A stretch of DNA of 32,127 bases from positions 1 to 32,127 of the IMG/VR virus record IMGVR_UViG_3300015360_000128, one strand, 5' to 3'. Under the pieces are notes generated by a model. It saw only the letters and a list, made by a program, of their open reading frames with translations, was not told the origin of the DNA and searched no databases. The number at the start of each line of letters is the position of its first letter. Position 1 is the stretch's first letter. This DNA is from a virus. The translations under genes and the position numbers were made by a program. Positions 7,417-21,070 of the stretch are shown piece by piece.

Positions 7417-7644
7417 CTAACTAGGTCTAATAACGCCCCATAAACATGAGGCTGCTAAATAACTCGCCAACAGAGCAATCCCAAAAAACCCAATATATAT
7501 AGGAAAAAGAACAATCATCCAAGGATCTGACCCACCTTCAGATAAAATAGCATACCATATTTTTACAGAAAGATATGTGAAAAAACAAAAACCAACCGCA
7601 GAGAATATACGGCTAGAAATTGTTGGTGAGTCAAGATCGTTCAT
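7417..7644 (-). CDS. Small two-helix membrane protein
   Basis: The protein has 75 residues with an ATG start at 7644. Two hydrophobic segments are visible: about residues 14-33 (FSAVGFCFFTYLSVKIWYAI) and about 43-68 (MIVLFPIYIGFFGIALLASY onwards), separated by a short polar SEGGSDP loop. This is the size and shape of phage holins and other small inner-membrane proteins, but nothing specific identifies it as one. It is encoded directly after the C-terminal RNR gene and before the unknown 6231-7373 gene. Its end overlaps the non-coding upstream part of that gene's frame. Confidence 0.65.
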   Translation of the reverse strand: MNDLDSPTISSRIFSAVGFCFFTYLSVKIWYAILSEGGSDPWMIVLFPIYIGFFGIALLASYLAASCLWGVIRPS

Positions 7645-7657
7645 ATTTTTTCTTTTG

Positions 7658-8626
7658 TCAAATCTTTGATATGGAGCATCCTTCTGGACCCGAACATGCT
7701 ACGGCGGCATATTCACTAACATCTTTATATTCTGGCTTAGTAAGAATCTTGGAGAAATCAACTTCTTTCATTTGTCTAGATACTGTCTCCCATTTATGCA
7801 AAAGGTGGGTATCCTTAAGACAATACACCATTTGGGTCAAATCTCCCTTGAAGTAATTCCGGGCGAACTTCTTGGCTCGGTCCAGCCACGATTTGCGAAG
7901 TAGGGCTTCCTCCCTAGTACCGCCAACCGGAATAGTCTTATCTTTAATGCAATCGCAGGCCTGCCAAAGGTTTTGGTTGAAATAATGGAGTCCGTCTACA
8001 ATAAGTCCGGAAGCGAATATAGCCCCTTTACCATATTTTTCCATCAATTCTTCGCAGGTAAGAACAGATGTGAATGGAGCCTGATTAAAATCCTTGTCGC
8101 CGTAGTCGGAAATAAAAGAGACTGCTGTAAAAATATCTTTATTATCCCAGATATAATTAACAACAGCTTCTTTATCATCCAATATGACTGTATTACTAAT
8201 ATTATGTGTTGTTAGAGGAGATATTCCAAGCTCTCTGTTAGTGCCGGGAATTACCCAGTGTTCTTGGGCTAATTTAATAAGCTCTAAGTGTTTAACTCCC
8301 TTCATATCCCTTTTAAATAAACCATCCTTTGGGTTTGTGACCGGAACAAATACTACATAATCGGTTTTTGAAGCAGACCAAACTGACTCTTCAATCAAAA
8401 ATGGCATATTTTTTTCAATCCACTTGGCGGTATCAGAATCTTTGTTTAGCTGCATAATTCTAAAATATCTCTCGGAATGTTCTGGGTGAATACCAGAAGC
8501 AGTGCCCAGACATACAGAATTGTGAGAAACTACACCATTAGATAATTGGTAAGAGTGAGTGTTTTCAACTTCAATGTCGCAAGTCATTTCCAAAATACTA
8601 TTCTTCGTTATTTTTTTTATCTTCAC
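7658..8626 (-). CDS. nrdJ: Class II ribonucleotide reductase, C-terminal part, fused to C-intein
   Basis: The protein has 322 residues from GTG 8626. Residues 1-36 are the C-terminal half of a split intein (CDIEVENTHSYQLS then NGVVSHN), and residues 37-322 are the C-terminal extein starting SVCLGTASGIHPEHSERY, which continues the RNR motif TTTKPSGNA of the gene at 9621-11828. The C-terminus has the Cys pair ACSGPEGC that re-reduces the active site in this family. RNR converts ribonucleotides to deoxyribonucleotides; the B12-dependent monomeric type needs no oxygen. The start lies within the last 29 nt of the homing endonuclease gene, with AAGGA about 10 nt upstream. Extein pieces sum to about 754 residues, close to the known monomeric class II enzyme (739 in Lactobacillus leichmannii). 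Confidence 0.9.
   Translation of the reverse strand: MKIKKITKNSILEMTCDIEVENTHSYQLSNGVVSHNSVCLGTASGIHPEHSERYFRIMQLNKDSDTAKWIEKNMPFLIEESVWSASKTDYVVFVPVTNPKDGLFKRDMKGVKHLELIKLAQEHWVIPGTNRELGISPLTTHNISNTVILDDKEAVVNYIWDNKDIFTAVSFISDYGDKDFNQAPFTSVLTCEELMEKYGKGAIFASGLIVDGLHYFNQNLWQACDCIKDKTIPVGGTREEALLRKSWLDRAKKFARNYFKGDLTQMVYCLKDTHLLHKWETVSRQMKEVDFSKILTKPEYKDVSEYAAVACSGPEGCSISKI
8519..8626 (-). other. C-intein half of split RNR intein
   Basis: Thirty-six codons encode intein blocks G and F: DIEVENTHSYQLSNGVVSHN, ending in the penultimate His and terminal Asn, with Ser as the +1 extein residue. All residues needed for C-terminal cleavage are present. The partner is the 109-residue half at 9624-9950. 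Confidence 0.9.
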
Positions 8627-9530
8627 TTTTTATTTTTCCTTTTATATGTATTAAAATATCAAAATTTACAGGATCTATATAAAAATTTTTAGCCCCATCA
8701 TTTACCCATATCATGCCTTCGTTTCTTGTTTTATTTTTATCTCGCCCGCCTCTAAACCTAGGATTGTTTTTTAAAAAATCTTCAAAAGATAAATTTAGCT
8801 GCTCGGATTTAGTATACTTATAAGATCTAATGTCGTCTGTATACCATTTAAAACCTTTGTTTTTTGGGCCACCCTTACGACCACGCTCTCTTTGCTTCTC
8901 TATTCTTTCCTCTTCTGATAAACCATTTTTTTCATGATAATTTTTACTAAATATTCCATTTTGGCCACCCTTTAAACATATTGCGGCCCTTAATTTAGGA
9001 TCGTAATATGCACTTACCTGTTTTTCTTTAAGTGTTTTATGCTGCCTTTTCATAACTTCCGGATCAAATATAGCTCTACCAAGCTTCTTGTTTGCGATAC
9101 CAGCAATCACGCCAGACCTTTTACTTATTTCGGATCTTTCTTCAGTAGTTAATCTAAATAATCCAGTTTTGTTTTTATAAGACAAATTGCCTTGTATAGA
9201 AGCTCTAATTCTTTGCTGTTTAGTATTTTCTTCAAACTGCTCTTCTGTTAAAACTAAATATCCCATATGCATATTCAGATAATCTTCTCTTTTTGTAGCA
9301 ATTTCTAGAAGCTGCGATTCAAATTTTATGGCATCGTATTGATTGTCAAAAACCCTAATTATCTTAAAAATAAAATCATCTTTTCCATACAATTTTATTA
9401 AATTTTTAATAGCGTTCGAAGAAGTAAAATATGTTATCCAAAAAAGTTCAGGAATACATCTTTGTTGATATTTGACACCCACATATTTTAATTGAGTTGT
9501 TTTATTTTTAACCAAATAGACATACGGCAT
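8598..9530 (-). CDS. GIY-YIG homing endonuclease, free-standing
   Basis: The protein has 310 residues with ATG 9530 and AAGGA 7 nt upstream. The N-terminal GIY-YIG nuclease domain is clear: YVYLVKNKTTQLKYVGV at residues 3-19 and further conserved blocks (FKIIRVFDNQYDAIKFE around 75-90). The C-terminal half has NUMOD3-like modules (GGQNGIFS, RGRKGGPKNKG) and a WVNDGAKNFYI motif typical of phage homing nucleases. It lies exactly between the two halves of the split RNR intein and reads in the same direction, so it probably cuts intein-less nrdJ alleles and spreads the whole fractured arrangement. Its 3' end overlaps the downstream intein half. The coding region is very AT-rich, which suggests transfer. 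Confidence 0.9.
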   Translation of the reverse strand: MPYVYLVKNKTTQLKYVGVKYQQRCIPELFWITYFTSSNAIKNLIKLYGKDDFIFKIIRVFDNQYDAIKFESQLLEIATKREDYLNMHMGYLVLTEEQFEENTKQQRIRASIQGNLSYKNKTGLFRLTTEERSEISKRSGVIAGIANKKLGRAIFDPEVMKRQHKTLKEKQVSAYYDPKLRAAICLKGGQNGIFSKNYHEKNGLSEEERIEKQRERGRKGGPKNKGFKWYTDDIRSYKYTKSEQLNLSFEDFLKNNPRFRGGRDKNKTRNEGMIWVNDGAKNFYIDPVNFDILIHIKGKIKSEDKKNNEE

Positions 9531-9555
9531 AAAAAATTCCTTAAACAGACATAGA

Positions 9556-9616
9556 AGTACTATACTACACTGTATAATACTCAGTATGCAGGTTTAATGC
9601 GTTTATGCAGGCTTAA
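9556..9616 (-). promoter_or_regulatory. Hairpin and direct repeats between RNR N-gene and homing endonuclease
   Basis: AGTACTATAC (9556-9565) and GTATAATACT (9572-9581) form a 10-bp inverted repeat with a 6-nt loop; in the minus-strand RNA one pair is G-U. Next to it are two 13-nt copies of TATGCAGG(T/C)TTAA at 9585-9597 and 9604-9616, 19 nt apart. The hairpin lies upstream of the endonuclease ribosome site and has no U-tract. Such sequences often regulate homing-nuclease translation in phages or mark an insertion boundary. Confidence 0.45.
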
Positions 9617-9620
9617 GTGA

Positions 9621-11828
9621 TTAATAAGCTATGATCTCATCGTTTTCTATTAAATCTTCCGTCCGAACCCAACCGTTCTTAGTCAAGAATTTATGATTAT
9701 CAGTAAAGCTACTTTTATACCCATCCTCAAATTCGATTTCGTAAGTTTCTGCAAAACCATTAACGTATAAAGCGGAAATTTTTTGTAATTCATTGTTCTT
9801 ATCATAAACCATTAAATCCTTTTTAATCTCCGGAAGTGAGGCCAGATCAACGGAAGGATTGTATTCTGAGTTATCCGTACAATGCTTAAATATCTCTAAT
9901 GATGACATATTACCCATACTTGTTTTTATTTTTGTGCTAAAAGTTTTGCAAGCATTTCCTGATGGTTTCGTTGTGGTTAGTCGAGCAGCTTGATTGCTTC
10001 CAAGTTTTTCAGCCAAACTCTTATTAATAATTCTTATTATTTCGACACCCTCCCTAAGCATTTTTGGGTCAAACATTTTAGGATTATTCATCCATCCCGT
10101 TATGGAAACTCCTAATAACGCCTCTCTTTTACAAATATCCTCTGAGGCTTTTGTTAAATATGGAAAAGTATTATAGGTCGATTGCAAAGTTCCTAAAATC
10201 GCCGCATCTTGACAAAGTCTAAAAAACGTCTCTTTATCTTTACATTTCTCAGCATTGATTTCGCACAAATTACAAAAATTCATTCCGAAAAGATCTTCAT
10301 TTTGATTAGTCCATTCAGAAAGTTGTTCATAGGATATACTAGAAACGTCTTCGTATGTATTAACTGGAATCATGCCAATTTCAAAACACCTTGCAACAAC
10401 AATATCCTCAACAATAATTGTCCTATGATTATTTTCTTCTAAACAATAAACATCTTCAAACCCATCAGTCTCCACACTCTTAACTGTTACCCATAACTTA
10501 TTGGTGTGTGGAGAGTAAGATAATAAAATATCTCCAGAAACTATATCCTTAGCTTCTTTAAAACCATTCCATGTAGCAATTTTGTGGTTGGGGGTTACTC
10601 TTAAAACATCTCCAAGTTCGGTGAGAATTTTTAATATCGGCTGTTTTAAACCAGTTAATCCAACTTTCTCACATTTGTTTTTAGAAATATATCCATAAAG
10701 TTTATTATCAACAGAAAAAGCCTCTTCTCCGTCAACAACTTCACCTTTAGCCCTAAGATCTTGAATTAAATAAATATCTTCCCCGAGATTCTGTTTTTCA
10801 ACAAGTTCTGCAAAAGAAAAATATCCATCAGTCGTAAGAACTCTCATTTCTTTAGTAAAGCATGGATTGAAACAATCAAATAGGGTGTTTCCAAACACAA
10901 AACCTATATCATTATCGCCGTCGTTCAGATTAACAATCTTATCAAAAAATTCTCTATCATTAGATTCTCTGGGAATTAATACGGAATTATTAGATCTGGC
11001 TCTTTGGGGGTTATCCTGCCTCCAACTTCCGGTCTTGGCCATAATCATTTCTTCATCCCTAGGGTCCACAATCATGCATAGAGCAGATCTTCTTAGGTTT
11101 CCGCTCAAGACTGCATCGGCTAAAAAACACAGCGTATCGAATGCTAAAATAGGCCTAATTACAGACCCTTCATTATCTATCCATTTTTCCCACAAGGCTT
11201 CAATTCTTTCCATTGACAACTTAAGACCATCTGGTCCGGGAGCTTTAAAAGCCCCACTAATCTTTGCCCCCTTAGATCTAATTTTAGAATAGTCAAATCG
11301 AATTTCGTATCCGGAGTATTCTGGAAATGGTTGCTTGTCAATAAAATAAGAAGAAAGCAAAACCCCACAAGCATCTGCCCAACCCTCAATAGAATCTGGA
11401 ACAACAAATGTTTTTACACCCTTCGTTCTTTTTTGAATTCTGGATAAATTGTCAACAAAAGGTTTGAGCAACGAACTACCACAACCACAACCACATAAGG
11501 AAAGATAGAAAACTTCTTGAAAACATCTATTGCGGCACAAATGGTTCACGACACAATTATAAATTTTTTCAGAATTTTTCATCAATTGTTTATGCCTAAA
11601 TTGTAAAGATCTTTGGGAGGCCAATAATTTCATTTCCCTCATAGATTCTAATGCTGAAGAAAACTCTTCCTCCAAATCTATATGTTTAAACTTCTCTCTG
11701 TGCCCCTGTATAATATCTTCACACGCTTCATCCCAAGTCTCGTATCTGTTGAATTCCGGTCTCCACTTCAAATAATCCGAGTAAAGCTTAAGATCGGACA
11801 AAAATTTCTTACCAGTTGACTTAGACAT
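9621..11828 (-). CDS. nrdJ: Class II ribonucleotide reductase, N-terminal part, with internal mini-intein and N-intein
   Basis: The protein has 735 residues with ATG 11828 and AAAGGA about 6 nt upstream. Residues 1-322 are the first RNR extein (RSLQFRHKQL region, SGNLRRSALCMIVDP, NSVLIPRESN, FNP at 320-322). An intein fills 323-480, and RNR resumes at C481 (CFEIGMIPV), the catalytic-cysteine motif. Residues 481-626 end with LTTTKPSGNA; residues 627-735 are the N-half of a split intein, and the chain then stops. The rest of the enzyme is the gene at 7658-8626. Two splicing events, one of them in trans, are needed to make a working enzyme. An intrinsic terminator precedes the gene, so it starts a new transcription unit or is read through. 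The similarity is to L. leichmannii-type monomeric class II enzymes. Confidence 0.9.
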   Translation of the reverse strand: MSKSTGKKFLSDLKLYSDYLKWRPEFNRYETWDEACEDIIQGHREKFKHIDLEEEFSSALESMREMKLLASQRSLQFRHKQLMKNSEKIYNCVVNHLCRNRCFQEVFYLSLCGCGCGSSLLKPFVDNLSRIQKRTKGVKTFVVPDSIEGWADACGVLLSSYFIDKQPFPEYSGYEIRFDYSKIRSKGAKISGAFKAPGPDGLKLSMERIEALWEKWIDNEGSVIRPILAFDTLCFLADAVLSGNLRRSALCMIVDPRDEEMIMAKTGSWRQDNPQRARSNNSVLIPRESNDREFFDKIVNLNDGDNDIGFVFGNTLFDCFNPCFTKEMRVLTTDGYFSFAELVEKQNLGEDIYLIQDLRAKGEVVDGEEAFSVDNKLYGYISKNKCEKVGLTGLKQPILKILTELGDVLRVTPNHKIATWNGFKEAKDIVSGDILLSYSPHTNKLWVTVKSVETDGFEDVYCLEENNHRTIIVEDIVVARCFEIGMIPVNTYEDVSSISYEQLSEWTNQNEDLFGMNFCNLCEINAEKCKDKETFFRLCQDAAILGTLQSTYNTFPYLTKASEDICKREALLGVSITGWMNNPKMFDPKMLREGVEIIRIINKSLAEKLGSNQAARLTTTKPSGNACKTFSTKIKTSMGNMSSLEIFKHCTDNSEYNPSVDLASLPEIKKDLMVYDKNNELQKISALYVNGFAETYEIEFEDGYKSSFTDNHKFLTKNGWVRTEDLIENDEIIAY
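9624..9950 (-). other. N-intein half of split RNR intein
   Basis: The 109 residues start at Cys (CKTFSTKIKTSMGN) and contain block B (FTDNHKFLT). They end with ENDEIIAY at a stop codon. The halves have the usual split-intein sizes of roughly 100 and 36 residues. Confidence 0.85.
10389..10862 (-). other. Mini-intein at the RNR catalytic cysteine, atypical C-terminus
   Basis: This 158-residue insert has clear N-terminal splicing blocks: Cys1 in CFTKEMRVLTTDGYFSFAEL, and the block B motif VTPNHKI with the conserved T and H. No endonuclease domain is present. The end reads VYCLEENNHRTIIVEDIVVA then R, directly followed by the catalytic Cys of RNR. The expected His-Asn ending is Ala-Arg, which should block Asn cyclisation. 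Confidence 0.8.
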
Positions 11829-11844
11829 GCTGATCCTTTAGACG

Positions 11845-11870
11845 AAAAAAGCCAACCAGAAAGATTGGCG
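11845..11870 (-). terminator. Intrinsic terminator upstream of RNR gene
   Basis: On the minus strand: GCCAATC, loop TTTCTG, GTTGGC, then TTTTTT. The stem is about 6-7 bp with a 6-T tail. It lies between the GT-sulfotransferase gene and nrdJ. A T-rich CCCTATAGTATTATAT segment just before it resembles the tail of the interspersed repeats. Confidence 0.75.
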
Positions 11871-11893: not shown

Positions 11894-13204
11894 CTATAGG
11901 GACGGCGTTACATTTCTACTTGGATATGGCTCACTTGGAACCGAAACCCCCAAGAACTTACACAATCCTTCCCACTCATTAGTTTCCATAACAAACAAGA
12001 CCGACCTATCTTTAAAGTATTCTTTAACTTCGGCATTGTGCTGCCTGTATTTGCTCAAAAATAGCTCGGCATCAAATCCTTTTTGCCCATATATAATCTT
12101 ATGTATAGTGTCGGTAAAAGGATCGCTCTTCCAATATATCCGCTGTGGATTATACTCAAAACTCCAGTGTTTTCTGGCAGATTCAATCCAATCGTTTTCG
12201 GGCCGAACAGTAAGAACAAATTTAGAATTAGGATAAGCCTTGTCTAATTGTTTGTAAAGTACAGGAATGGGGAGATCGCATAACGCATAATTCTTTTCTA
12301 ATACTAGAGATCGGCCCTCGGAAGTCATTTGATTCCATATGGACTTAGCCCAGTGGGCGTTTTTCCAGTGGGCCGATTTATATCCCAGCATCTCGAAAGC
12401 GTGATGTAGCGATGTGGTGGCGGTCTTATGGCACCCAATACCGAATACACGAGTTGGAACCGGACTTATATCATATTCCACGTCATTATTAAAATTTTTA
12501 GTCACAACTCCGCATCCAAAATTCCCATAGTTTACTACACGGTTTTTTGGGTCAATCCAAAAATCTTCTGCATCGGCGAAAGCCGCATCTGGATATTCCT
12601 TAAACCGCATTTTGTCGTTGTGCCTAACAGCCCTTAAATATTTTGGATCAATAGATTCTCTAACAAACCCTAGTCGCCCTAATCGGGCCACATAATCTTT
12701 GTCATCGGGCGAATAAGTGTCATATTTCTCGTCATATCCCCCAGAAAGTATGAATTGGTCCCTAGAACACACTATACGCCCCGAGATGCCTTTTGGGAGC
12801 ACTCCTTTGATCATATTGGCCCAAAGAAATACGTCCTCAGCAACAGCAAATTTGAAGTCTACGTACCTATCAAAGTCCTTCGTGGTAAAATTATCAGCAT
12901 CCAAATTAACTAGGATATCTCCCCCATTGATAATTCCGAGCCTGTGTGCCAAGTTTTTAGCGTGGGCCATTCTAAATTTGTGGTCTGCATGATACTTATA
13001 GTAAATAAGCTTACCACTGGCTATATCTTTGGCATGATCTTTACTAATTCTCTCGGCCATATCGTCGCCGCTATTATAATCGACCACCACGAATTTGGTG
13101 TTAGGCATATTATTATCTGCCAAGTTTTTAGGCAAAGTCTCAGCTAAATGCTGATAACGATTTTTACACGTTGTACAAAAAATTACACTTTTAGCTTGAT
13201 CCAT
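11894..13204 (-). CDS. Glycosyltransferase family 2 - sulfotransferase fusion
   Basis: The protein has 436 residues from ATG 13204. Residues 5-240 form a GT-A fold: SVIFCTTCKNRYQHLAETLP at the N-terminus, VVVDYNSGD (39-47), the metal-binding LDADN (D102 and D104) and GGYDEKYDTYSPDDKDY (155-171). Residues 250-436 look like a PAPS-dependent sulfotransferase: the P-loop GCHKTATTSL (256-265) binds 5'-phosphosulfate, and FVLTVRPENDWIESARKHW (329-347) fits the 3'-phosphate site. Such a protein might transfer a sugar and then sulfate it, though the acceptor is unknown. The parts are in frame with no junction problem. Another sulfotransferase lies at 22703-23380. Confidence 0.8.
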   Translation of the reverse strand: MDQAKSVIFCTTCKNRYQHLAETLPKNLADNNMPNTKFVVVDYNSGDDMAERISKDHAKDIASGKLIYYKYHADHKFRMAHAKNLAHRLGIINGGDILVNLDADNFTTKDFDRYVDFKFAVAEDVFLWANMIKGVLPKGISGRIVCSRDQFILSGGYDEKYDTYSPDDKDYVARLGRLGFVRESIDPKYLRAVRHNDKMRFKEYPDAAFADAEDFWIDPKNRVVNYGNFGCGVVTKNFNNDVEYDISPVPTRVFGIGCHKTATTSLHHAFEMLGYKSAHWKNAHWAKSIWNQMTSEGRSLVLEKNYALCDLPIPVLYKQLDKAYPNSKFVLTVRPENDWIESARKHWSFEYNPQRIYWKSDPFTDTIHKIIYGQKGFDAELFLSKYRQHNAEVKEYFKDRSVLFVMETNEWEGLCKFLGVSVPSEPYPSRNVTPSL

Positions 13205-18480: not shown

Positions 18481-19074
18481 CTACTTACCGTATTTCGCTT
18501 TAATCTCACCTAACTTTTCGCCGGTTAAAAACCCTTTCACAACATCCATCTTCCCATCAATAAACACTTCGAACGTTGGAAACATGGAATATTTTGATCC
18601 AAATTCATCCACTTCTACAGTCCATCCGGATTTTATTAGCCTATCTTTCATCGTGCCTTTCCATAGTTTGCATGGAGCACAATTTTGAAGCGAATACATT
18701 TTGATGTGGGCGTTTAATTTGGTTGGAGCGGGTTCAGGCTTTACAACCTTTGGAGTCTCAACAATAACCTCGACTCGTGGTAGCTCTACCGTCACCTTGG
18801 GGGCGACTTGGCCGGTGCCCTTGGTACAACCGGGATAATTGGGGCAAGGCGTCTTATGACCGTCGCCATGCGTTATAAAGCCAGTGCCTTTACATTCGCA
18901 CTTTACTAGAACTACGGGTTTTGGGACCACATCCTTTTTAAATACAATGTCTTCAACCTTAACAAAGGCCTGTTTAATAGTTTCCCTCAGTTTAGTAATA
19001 ACTTCAGACTCATCGGCAATAACCGGCGAGGAAATGATCAAAAAGAAAAATATAGTCTTAAAGGAATTCGTCAT
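18481..19074 (-). CDS. Secreted thioredoxin-like protein with DnaJ-type Cys/Gly region
   Basis: The protein has 197 residues from ATG 19074. Residues 1-20 form a signal peptide (MTNSFKTIFFFLIISSPVIA). Residues 59-88 hold CECKGTGF and CPNYPGCTKGTG, which recall the CxxCxGxG zinc repeats of DnaJ. A Pro/Val linker follows. Residues 123-197 form a small thioredoxin or glutaredoxin-like domain: active site NCAPC (C132, C135) and cis-Pro in MFPTFEVFIDG. The predicted role is disulfide chemistry outside the cytoplasm, possibly on virion or envelope proteins. The export signal makes it unlikely to be the partner of the phage RNR. It overlaps the peptidase gene by 17 nt. Confidence 0.75.
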   Translation of the reverse strand: MTNSFKTIFFFLIISSPVIADESEVITKLRETIKQAFVKVEDIVFKKDVVPKPVVLVKCECKGTGFITHGDGHKTPCPNYPGCTKGTGQVAPKVTVELPRVEVIVETPKVVKPEPAPTKLNAHIKMYSLQNCAPCKLWKGTMKDRLIKSGWTVEVDEFGSKYSMFPTFEVFIDGKMDVVKGFLTGEKLGEIKAKYGK

Positions 19075-21070
19075 ATATACTCCAATCTATGTTTCGTGCG
19101 GGAAATCCATTTACATTACTGACGGCATAAGTTTGTTTTTGGTTAAGAATGGCTTGGGCATCTTCTTCTGTGATCCAAAAACTACCTCCGGGCTGATTAA
19201 ACCAAAGGGGGCCATTGATGTAAGAAGAATTACCACACCAACAGGCGTCACCGTTTCTTCTTACATAAATAACACTATTTGGAACGGTAACGCAATAGAC
19301 TTTTCCAATATAATCTATTTCGTTTTTTCCCCAACCTTCCATAGGACATGTTTCGTTACTTAATTCTTTTATCCTAATCTGATATTCTAATAAGTTTCTA
19401 TTGTTTCCACTTGTGGTTTTTTCTCCACGTCTATCTATAATTCTAATATCACCAGAATATCCTATAGATAACAACAATCTTTGAAAATCATCAGCCAAAT
19501 GTTTTGATCCAGTGTAATATGTATTTTTTCCATCGCTTCTGCTGCCGTCACCTAGCATTAAAGCATCATAAAATATTTTTAATTGATCTTTTGAACAATC
19601 CCAGACATAATCTGGTATGTATTTTGTCTCAGAACCCCCTAAAGTTCTAAGTTCATCAAATAACTGCCTATTAGCAGTAGTTATCTTATCATTTGAAATA
19701 TTAAATTTTATAGTTTTACTTAATTTCCTACAACATTCAATCATTCTTTTTTTAGATTCTAGCTTAACTTGGCAAATTCCAGAAGCATAATATCTTTGAA
19801 GTCTTGTTTCTTTACTTTTTACAAGAGTTTTTAAGTTACTATCATCTCTAACTGTTTTTATTTTATTTAATTCTATTTCGTACGTGCTTGTATATCCTTC
19901 GGAAATAAAATATCCAAGAAATTCAAGCCAAACATTCATTGGAATTTGATAATCTCCAAATTTATGCATTAGTAAATGGCCGTTGTTTACTCCATTGCAA
20001 TTCTTTTTAAATTGAAATTTTTCATGATTAGATATGTTTTCTGCACGCATTAAAGAAAAATTTTCTTGTGATGAATAATATTTTTTTGAATACATGTTGT
20101 GATTTGGAGTAACTAAAAGATCAATATTCCTACCTTTAAATCTCAACAATTTAGTGTTCACGTCATATTCCTGATACTCTTCTGGATATTGAAACTCTAA
20201 ATTTCCATCTTTATTTAATGTTGCTACGGTATCAAACTTAGATAAATTTTTAAACAATTTCCATCCATTATTTGTTAAAATTTCCGTATCATCTGAATAG
20301 CAGCCCCATGAATTAATGTACAGTATGAGTAGCTGATCTGATCTTTGTTTGGTATCATCCATAGACCCAAAACAGGTAGCGTGATTCCAAACACCTTTTC
20401 TCCTAATTATACCGTTTTTATCACGATTTTTAGCCGAAAAACCTAGATTACTTCCGTTAACAACTCCATATCCATTATAGATTGAGTCTCTAAGTTCTGA
20501 AGTTTTGGTGATTAGGGCAAAATCTTGTATTGTGTTGGATTTGGTCTCGTCTGTTATAATTTTAGGGGTTCCGGTTCGGCCCCAGTTAATACCTAAGTTG
20601 GGATTGTATTTAGAGAGATCGTAGGGGCCGTACTTCTTCCTGAAAGCTATCCCCTTAGTTTGCAAATACTGCATAGCATAAATAACAGCCATACCTTCGC
20701 CACCATGACGACGAGCCCCATAGATAGTCTCCGTGGCTAGCTTACCGGGATATTTTTCGGCCTCGAATCTGGCCTTGATATCACACACTAAAGATATGGT
20801 AGCAGCGTTACGAGCAGCATGAGAACTACAATCGCTCGTAAGCTGATTCTCGTCTTGCCCAAAGTTTGGATCGAATTCCTGCACCAACTTATAAGGTAGG
20901 GCCATTTTGCCCTTACCGGACTCTGCTATAGTTGAATCTGCGGCCTGACTAAATAACGGCTTAGGCATACTAGACAATATCTCATCAACTTTTCTTTCAT
21001 CGAACTGAGTTCCGTCCAAACCATTTTCATAAGCATCAATAAGTGCCTGAGTCGATGAAAAAGCTGCCAT
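19058..21070 (-). CDS. Papain-like (C1) cysteine peptidase with internal LAGLIDADG intein
   Basis: The precursor has 670 residues from ATG 21070. Extein 1-256 has ENQLTSDCSSHAA with the likely catalytic Cys81, GVWNHATCFG with His230, and YINSWG with Asn253, the papain active-site triad in order. A 358-residue intein follows, after which the extein resumes SSYINGPLWFNQPGGSFW (615-670). The spliced protein would be 312 residues. No signal peptide is seen; the N-terminal 70 residues could be a propeptide or a virion-targeting part. Substrate unknown; possible roles are prohead or tail maturation, or lysis. The gene is directly upstream of the secreted thioredoxin-like gene. No peptidase activity is expected before splicing, since Asn253 adjoins the intein. 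Confidence 0.85.
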   Translation of the reverse strand: MAAFSSTQALIDAYENGLDGTQFDERKVDEILSSMPKPLFSQAADSTIAESGKGKMALPYKLVQEFDPNFGQDENQLTSDCSSHAARNAATISLVCDIKARFEAEKYPGKLATETIYGARRHGGEGMAVIYAMQYLQTKGIAFRKKYGPYDLSKYNPNLGINWGRTGTPKIITDETKSNTIQDFALITKTSELRDSIYNGYGVVNGSNLGFSAKNRDKNGIIRRKGVWNHATCFGSMDDTKQRSDQLLILYINSWGCYSDDTEILTNNGWKLFKNLSKFDTVATLNKDGNLEFQYPEEYQEYDVNTKLLRFKGRNIDLLVTPNHNMYSKKYYSSQENFSLMRAENISNHEKFQFKKNCNGVNNGHLLMHKFGDYQIPMNVWLEFLGYFISEGYTSTYEIELNKIKTVRDDSNLKTLVKSKETRLQRYYASGICQVKLESKKRMIECCRKLSKTIKFNISNDKITTANRQLFDELRTLGGSETKYIPDYVWDCSKDQLKIFYDALMLGDGSRSDGKNTYYTGSKHLADDFQRLLLSIGYSGDIRIIDRRGEKTTSGNNRNLLEYQIRIKELSNETCPMEGWGKNEIDYIGKVYCVTVPNSVIYVRRNGDACWCGNSSYINGPLWFNQPGGSFWITEEDAQAILNQKQTYAVSNVNGFPARNIDWSIYDEFL
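19229..20302 (-). other. LAGLIDADG intein in the peptidase
   Basis: The insert has 358 residues. Block A is CYSDDTEILTNNGWKLFKNL, block B LVTPNHNM. Two LAGLIDADG-like helices are EFLGYFISEGY and FYDALMLGDGS, with acidic residues at the active positions. The end is VYCVTVPNSVIYVRRNG, then DACWCGN, with Ser as +1. The Asn is present; the penultimate residue is Gly, as in many phage inteins. Confidence 0.9.

What the first reader, a model, noticed from the sequence alone, without database searches (positions are those of the whole stretch)
7658..11828. Ribonucleotide reductase gene fractured by a split intein with a GIY-YIG homing endonuclease between the halves
The gene order on the minus strand is RNR N-part plus N-intein, GIY-YIG nuclease, C-intein plus RNR C-part. 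The N-half ends at LTTTKPSGNA, and the C-half resumes SVCLGTASGIHPEH; the two intein parts have blocks A, B and F with proper His-Asn/Ser at the end. Known precedent is the 'fractured gene' arrangement found in metagenomic phage genes; there the nuclease is usually Vsr-like, whereas here it is GIY-YIG. The HEG starts with its own ribosome site and overlaps the C-half by 29 nt, which couples its expression to the RNR.
Basis: partly seen in the sequence, partly recalled or inferred. Interest (0 to 1): 0.8.

Follow-up and report, generated by a model that had tools for sequence, protein, structure and literature searches.

The report
Split-intein phage ribonucleotide reductase gene
A phage gene for the DNA-building enzyme ribonucleotide reductase is broken in two by a self-splicing protein element with a DNA-cutting gene lodged in the break, so the two halves must be stitched together after translation; the arrangement is known, but comparison with relatives shows the stitching element and its cutter moving together between distant phage enzymes.

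Summary
On the minus strand a class II RNR gene is broken at KPSGNA|S: N-half plus IntN (9621-11828), a SegE-type GIY-YIG nuclease (8598-9530), and IntC plus C-half (7658-8626). The overlap is 29 nt, and splicing residues are intact on both intein parts. Relatives with an uninterrupted gene have the exact empty site (67% identity). First, this is not a new kind: a GIY-YIG nuclease in a fractured RNR gene is published (AceL NrdHF, PMC7891396). I found eight more fractured class II RNRs with GIY-YIG nucleases, besides many with HNH or Vsr-like ones. Second, the N-half carries another, contiguous intein (158 aa) directly before the catalytic cysteine. Its last two residues are Ala-Arg, not His-Asn, so it may not splice; whether a working 754-residue enzyme forms is open. 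Third, phylogenies show split intein and GIY-YIG gene moving as a unit: locus L102 has this intein/nuclease type inside a distant RNR (AU p=0.005 and 2.5e-5), two codons from the window's register. Verdict: a good new member of a known kind, with a defective-looking second intein as the main puzzle.

The parts
9621..11828 (-). RNR N-half ORF (735 aa): extein 1, contiguous intein A, extein 2, IntN of split intein B
   Evidence: phrog_367 ribonucleotide reductase 6.9e-49
10863..11828 (-). extein 1 (322 aa, ends FNP)
   Evidence: 66-67% identical to intact L003
10389..10862 (-). intein A: contiguous 158-aa mini-intein, NP|C..AR|C, directly before the catalytic-site Cys; lacks terminal His-Asn
   Evidence: TIGR01445 over residues 323-419; Hint fold pLDDT 85.9, best PDB match 3.1e-9; absent at exactly this point in L003 etc.
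9951..10388 (-). extein 2 (146 aa, CFEIG..KPSGNA)
9621..9950 (-). IntN of split intein B (109 aa, Cys1, block B TDNH) with stop codon
8598..9530 (-). GIY-YIG (SegE-type) homing endonuclease gene, 310 aa, own Shine-Dalgarno-like AAGGA
   Evidence: PF19835 9.1e-7; phrog_314 1e-10; N-domain model matches I-TevI catalytic domain, prob 1.00
7658..8626 (-). RNR C-half ORF (322 aa, GTG start): IntC plus extein 3
8519..8626 (-). IntC of split intein B (36 aa, ends VVSHN)
   Evidence: TIGR01443 6.5e-5; conserved family alignment A1
7658..8518 (-). extein 3 (286 aa, SVCLG..CSISKI) with stop codon
   Evidence: 73% identical to L003
8598..8626 (-). 29-nt overlap of HEG 3' end and C-half start
   Evidence: similar 4-26 nt overlaps in many relatives
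11851..11869 (-). terminator-like hairpin upstream of the N-half
   Evidence: counts near chance level; not proof
7592..7616 (-). terminator-like hairpin downstream of the C-half
   Evidence: counts near chance level; not proof

Best explanation
A class II (adenosylcobalamin-type) phage RNR gene carries a 'fractured gene' mobile element at the KPSGNA|S codons. The N- and C-polypeptides are made from one transcription unit (inferred); IntN and IntC find each other and trans-splice the exteins (predicted from intact residues and relatives, not shown). The GIY-YIG nuclease encoded between them cuts uninterrupted KPSGNA-S alleles of co-infecting phages, so that the whole IntN-HEG-IntC segment is copied in by recombination (inferred from empty sites and from the phylogenetic evidence for transfer). 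A second, contiguous mini-intein precedes the active-site Cys; it looks decayed at its last two residues, so completion of the active enzyme is the weak link.
For: Exact empty sites at both insertion points in intact homologues. IntN and IntC keep Cys1, TxxH, block F Asp/His, His-Asn and Ser+1. Inserted pieces are lower in GC (HEG 0.30, IntN 0.32, IntC 0.31) than the exteins (0.35-0.40). GIY-YIG catalytic fold and conserved Tyr/Tyr/Glu/Asn. HEG and IntN differ from relatives most at third codon positions, as expected under purifying selection. Nine GIY-YIG HEGs sit in the same place in fractured RNRs. The window intein falls in a supported clade (97/97) of 7 GIY-YIG loci plus one HEG-less locus. 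L102 intein and RNR trees conflict: AU p=0.0049 and 2.5e-5. Only one genome-contig hit against dozens of viral loci, so this is mainly phage-borne.
Against: Intein A ends AR|C, while every other NPC-site intein seen ends HN; without Asn cyclisation RNR maturation should stall. The N-half extein has more unique changes at otherwise invariant columns than the C-half (19/162 v 1/76, p=0.005), hinting at relaxed or altered constraint. No homing, splicing or co-transcription was observed; promoter and terminator hits are at chance level.
Confidence: 0.8

Rival explanations
1. The RNR is in decay: intein A has lost its C-terminal catalytic dipeptide, so the enzyme is not completed and the locus persists mainly as a platform for the selfish intein/HEG cassette.
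For: AR|C instead of HN|C, and block F Asp replaced by Cys; excess of unusual substitutions in the N-half.
Against: 735- and 322-codon ORFs without stop or frameshift; RNR redox cysteines, NPC..E and the C-terminal Cys pair retained; third-position-biased divergence in all exteins; relative-rate tests of window against L003 not significant.
Confidence: 0.3
2. The halves work as separate, non-spliced polypeptides (genes-in-pieces as in Aeromonas phage Aeh1 NrdA), and the intein parts are passive.
For: Precedent of a functional split RNR interrupted by a HEG without splicing (described in PMC3653736).
Against: Both parts of intein B keep all splicing residues and are conserved across dozens of loci; no intein is described for Aeh1.
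Confidence: 0.07
3. The GIY-YIG gene is an unrelated free-standing endonuclease that lodged between the halves and does not mobilise this site.
For: The same C-terminal module occurs in free-standing GIY-YIG genes between tail genes (L083, L084).
Against: Nine related GIY-YIG genes at the same split point; co-clustering of nuclease type with intein phylogeny (0 of 500 shuffles for GIY-YIG).
Confidence: 0.12

Closest known systems
AceL NrdHF fractured gene (class 3 split intein with GIY-YIG HEG, Ace Lake phage-like contig; PMC7891396)
   Same: RNR gene broken by a split intein with a putative GIY-YIG homing endonuclease between the halves, phage-like contig
   Different: There the class Ib beta subunit and a class 3 intein (Ala1, internal Cys branch point); here the class II catalytic chain and a class 1-type intein with Cys1
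Fractured genes of Dassa et al. 2009 (NAR 37:2560)
   Same: DNA-metabolism enzyme gene broken by a split intein with a free-standing endonuclease gene inside
   Different: From memory, half of those had Vsr-like nucleases; the paper is not held in this library, so details were not checked. Here GIY-YIG
NrdJ-1 split intein (PDB 8ubs)
   Same: Split intein of a class II RNR
   Different: NrdJ-1 corresponds to the NPC|S-site split inteins (L067 NPC intein matches 8ubs at 2.3e-33), whereas window intein B sits at KPSGNA|S and its IntN matches 8ubs only at E=0.62
L082 (IMGVR_UViG_3300048580_000535)
   Same: Same full layout: contiguous NP|C intein, KPSGNA|C IntN, GIY-YIG HEG (47%), IntC
   Different: Its NPC intein keeps LAGLIDADG and ends VHN|C; exteins 43-49% identical
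Aeromonas phage Aeh1 nrdA genes-in-pieces
   Same: RNR interrupted by a homing endonuclease gene
   Different: mobE nuclease, no splicing, functional as two genes (as described in PMC3653736)
Salmonella phage S16 uvsW
   Same: Cultured phage with helicase halves carrying IntN/IntC and a nuclease-like ORF between
   Different: Helicase host gene; TnsA-like nuclease match with NUMOD3

Membership tests
fractured gene (split intein + free-standing endonuclease) | conserved enzyme gene broken in two separate ORFs at one point | tested here: met
   both halves align to adjacent parts of intact L003/L006-type genes
fractured gene (split intein + free-standing endonuclease) | IntN at end of first ORF, IntC at start of second, splicing residues intact | tested here: met
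fractured gene (split intein + free-standing endonuclease) | endonuclease gene between the halves | tested here: met
fractured gene (split intein + free-standing endonuclease) | trans-splicing of the two products | not testable with these tools
   needs co-expression
GIY-YIG homing endonuclease (SegE-type) | GIY-YIG fold and catalytic residues | tested here: met
   PF19835 above cut-off; invariant Tyr5, Tyr16, Glu71, Asn86 among 9 relatives; I-TevI is best PDB fold match, E 0.015, prob 1.00
GIY-YIG homing endonuclease (SegE-type) | cleaves the empty allele | not testable with these tools
   empty alleles identified; assay needed
class II RNR (NrdJ) | sequence family and catalytic cysteines, NPC.E, C-terminal Cys pair | tested here: met
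   TIGR02505 1.8e-21, below its whole-protein cut-off for this half; alignment
class 1 intein (intein A, N-half) | Cys1, block B TxxH, Hint fold | tested here: met
class 1 intein (intein A, N-half) | penultimate His and terminal Asn (or Gln/Asp) | tested here: not met
   ends Ala-Arg; other NPC-site inteins end His-Asn
class 3 intein | no nucleophile at position 1, Cys in motif F/C2 | tested here: not met
   intein A has Cys1 although it has a Cys at the block F Asp position; intein B has Cys1 and Asp in block F

The most novel reading that the evidence does not exclude
Intein A is not dead: it completes or controls RNR assembly without a terminal Asn (for example by N-terminal cleavage only or another C-terminal reaction), so that the enzyme is built from three pieces by one orthodox trans-splice and one unorthodox step at the catalytic cysteine.
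Probability: 0.1. Interest if true: 0.75.

Novelty: new member of a known kind. Interest (0 to 1): 0.45.

Why it matters
It adds a class II RNR fractured gene with a GIY-YIG nuclease to a known kind. The surrounding set gives a comparative series at one gene region: empty, contiguous mini-intein, split without nuclease, and split with one of three unrelated nuclease families, plus a statistically supported transfer of intein and nuclease together between distant RNRs. That makes the question of how nucleases break inteins and spread split inteins directly testable with defined empty and occupied alleles. New split inteins at a KPSG site are also candidate ligation tools.

Tried and rejected
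Rfam scan of window, L005, L095, L082, L067: no family at gathering threshold, so the group-I-like introns in L005/L095 rest on exon logic only. Search for relatives of intein A in viral contigs: none. Cultured phage collection: no phage with this split RNR recognised. Promoter scan: chance level. Relative-rate tests for decay of the exteins of the window against L003: not significant. Shared HEG C-terminal module as a site-specific marker: rejected, it also occurs in free-standing tail-region HEGs. Idea that the two ORFs are paralogues: rejected. Idea that intein A is a class 3 intein: rejected, it has Cys1.

Full report
What is there. The window is one whole linear IMG/VR virus record of 32,127 bases. 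It carries rIIA- and rIIB-like, UvsX-like and PhoH genes, which suggests a T4-like tailed phage (inference). On the minus strand, between two terminator-like hairpins at 11851-11869 and 7592-7616 (at chance frequency), lie three ORFs: 11828-9621, 9530-8598 and 8626-7658. The first has, in order, RNR extein 1 (322 aa), a contiguous 158-aa intein A, RNR extein 2 (146 aa, ending KPSGNA) and a 109-aa IntN. The second is a 310-aa nuclease. The third is a 36-aa IntC ending VVSHN followed by RNR extein 3 (286 aa). Removing all intein parts leaves 754 residues.

Tests of the observation. Intact homologues (L003, L004, L006 and many others) run through both insertion points without a gap in tblastn: extein 1, 2 and 3 match adjacent stretches of one gene at 66, 55 and 73% identity in L003. 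At DNA level the joined flanks match the intact alleles at 59-64 of 90 positions, with the empty site present. Family searches: intein_Nterm 8.6e-12, intein_Cterm 6.5e-5, RTPR 1.8e-21, Pfam Intein_splicing 6.2e-11 and SegE_GIY-YIG 9.1e-7. The 29-nt overlap of HEG and C-half is exact.

The nuclease. It aligns with eight others found between fractured RNR halves (L082, L096, L097, L098, L102, L107, L127, L138; 40-52% identity), with invariant Tyr, Tyr, Glu and Asn at the catalytic positions. The AlphaFold model of the N-terminal part has the beta-beta-alpha-beta-alpha order, and its best PDB matches are the I-TevI catalytic domain (E 0.015, probability 1.00, TM-score 0.66 over the target). Overall model confidence is moderate (pLDDT 70.6).

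How common. A scan with the IntC region and a profile search gave several dozen fractured or intein-bearing RNRs. Classified by the ORF between the halves: GIY-YIG in 9 distinct loci including the window, HNH in 12, Vsr-like/EDxHD-type in 12 (by length, architecture and a C-terminal REase-like match in those with a hit; several have no Pfam hit, and some of these are class I-like RNRs), none in about 9, and a few contiguous inteins (for example L125). The sample is biased by the search patterns. In most loci with a nuclease the HEG stop overlaps the C-half start by a few to 26 nt, which fits translational coupling (inference).

Transfer as a unit. In the tree of IntN+IntC, the window lies in a supported clade (97/97) of seven GIY-YIG loci and the HEG-less L101; the GIY-YIG label is more clustered than in any of 500 shuffles. 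L102 belongs to that clade by its intein (58% to the window) and its nuclease (53%), yet its RNR is 60% identical to L066 and only 35-40% to the window. Forcing L102 with its RNR relatives on the intein tree is rejected (AU p=0.0049), and forcing it with the GIY-YIG long-NrdJ loci on the extein tree is rejected (p=2.5e-5). The groups were named after the trees had been seen, so the p-values are somewhat optimistic. The simplest reading is that intein and nuclease moved together. The insertion register differs: KPSGNA^S in the window type and KPSG/KPAG^T in short NrdJ including L102, two codons apart. I have no explanation for that shift. Nuclease heads can also be exchanged on one tail: L127 (GIY-YIG) and L067 (HNH) share a C-terminal region including a Cys/His tail; support for the grouping is moderate (90/97).

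Intein A. It sits between NP and the catalytic-site Cys (NP|C..AR|C). It keeps Cys1 and TPNH, and folds confidently as a Hint domain (pLDDT 85.9; best PDB hits DnaB and RecA mini-inteins, E 3e-9). But the last two residues are Ala-Arg, and the block F Asp is Cys. Every other NPC-site intein or split intein that I read ends His-Asn (L067, L082, L096, L100, L104, L106, L108, L109, L124, L127, L128, L136, L138). By established intein chemistry, loss of the terminal Asn blocks resolution of the branched intermediate, so this intein probably does not splice. Against simple decay: the frame is open over 735 codons, RNR catalytic residues are intact and divergence is third-position-biased. In favour of altered constraint: 19 of the 20 unique changes at columns otherwise invariant in the long-NrdJ set are in the N-half (Fisher p=0.005; the comparison was chosen after seeing the data, so treat as suggestive). 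Relative-rate tests of window against L003 are not significant.

Compared with what is known. Fractured genes were described by Dassa et al. 2009; that paper is not in the held library, so its content is quoted only from other papers and memory. The NPC-site split intein in L067 is of the NrdJ-1 type (PDB 8ubs, 2.3e-33); window intein B is a different one, at KPSG.

Shown: anatomy, homology, empty sites, phylogenetic conflict. Inferred: co-transcription, trans-splicing, homing. Open: whether intein A splices and whether the phage makes a working enzyme.

Noticed in passing
window 19058-21070 (-): A 670-aa protein with an NSWG motif is interrupted by a LAGLIDADG intein (NSWG|CYSDDTEIL..CWCGN|SSYINGP), ending Gly-Asn instead of His-Asn: a third intein in this record.
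   Followed up: partly
L005 4213-5098 and 5331-5556; L095 (Pseudaeromonas phage KLEP7) about 1145-1385: Group-I-like introns at SGG|VRR (with a LAGLIDADG-type ORF) and inside the NPC Cys codon of related RNR genes; the NPC codon is thus hit by contiguous inteins, split inteins and introns. No Rfam match.
   Followed up: partly
window N-half residues 244-245 (about 11094-11099): SGGVRR is changed to SGNLRR exactly where L005 carries its intron; might be a resistant target site.
   Followed up: no
L067 2292-6639: RNR broken twice: NrdJ-1-type split intein with a Vsr-like ORF at NPC, and a KPSG split intein with an HNH ORF.
   Followed up: partly
L101 5568-6069 and 4731 onward: Split intein at KPSGNA without a nuclease (68-nt gap) in the RNR family of the window, and a further IntC-like end (SHN|SAMNMI) near VRRSA.
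   Followed up: partly
L151 (Salmonella phage S16) 2152-4878: uvsW helicase fractured by a split intein with a TnsA-like NUMOD3 ORF between, in a cultured phage annotated only as helicase and hypothetical.
   Followed up: partly
L154 2460-4120 (MAG contig labelled Cloacimonadota): Apparent fractured gene with IntN, a long repeat-type ORF and IntC; the only genome-contig hit, perhaps a phage contig.
   Followed up: no
window 11894-13204 (-): Glycosyltransferase-2 fused to a sulfotransferase domain directly upstream of the RNR.
   Followed up: no
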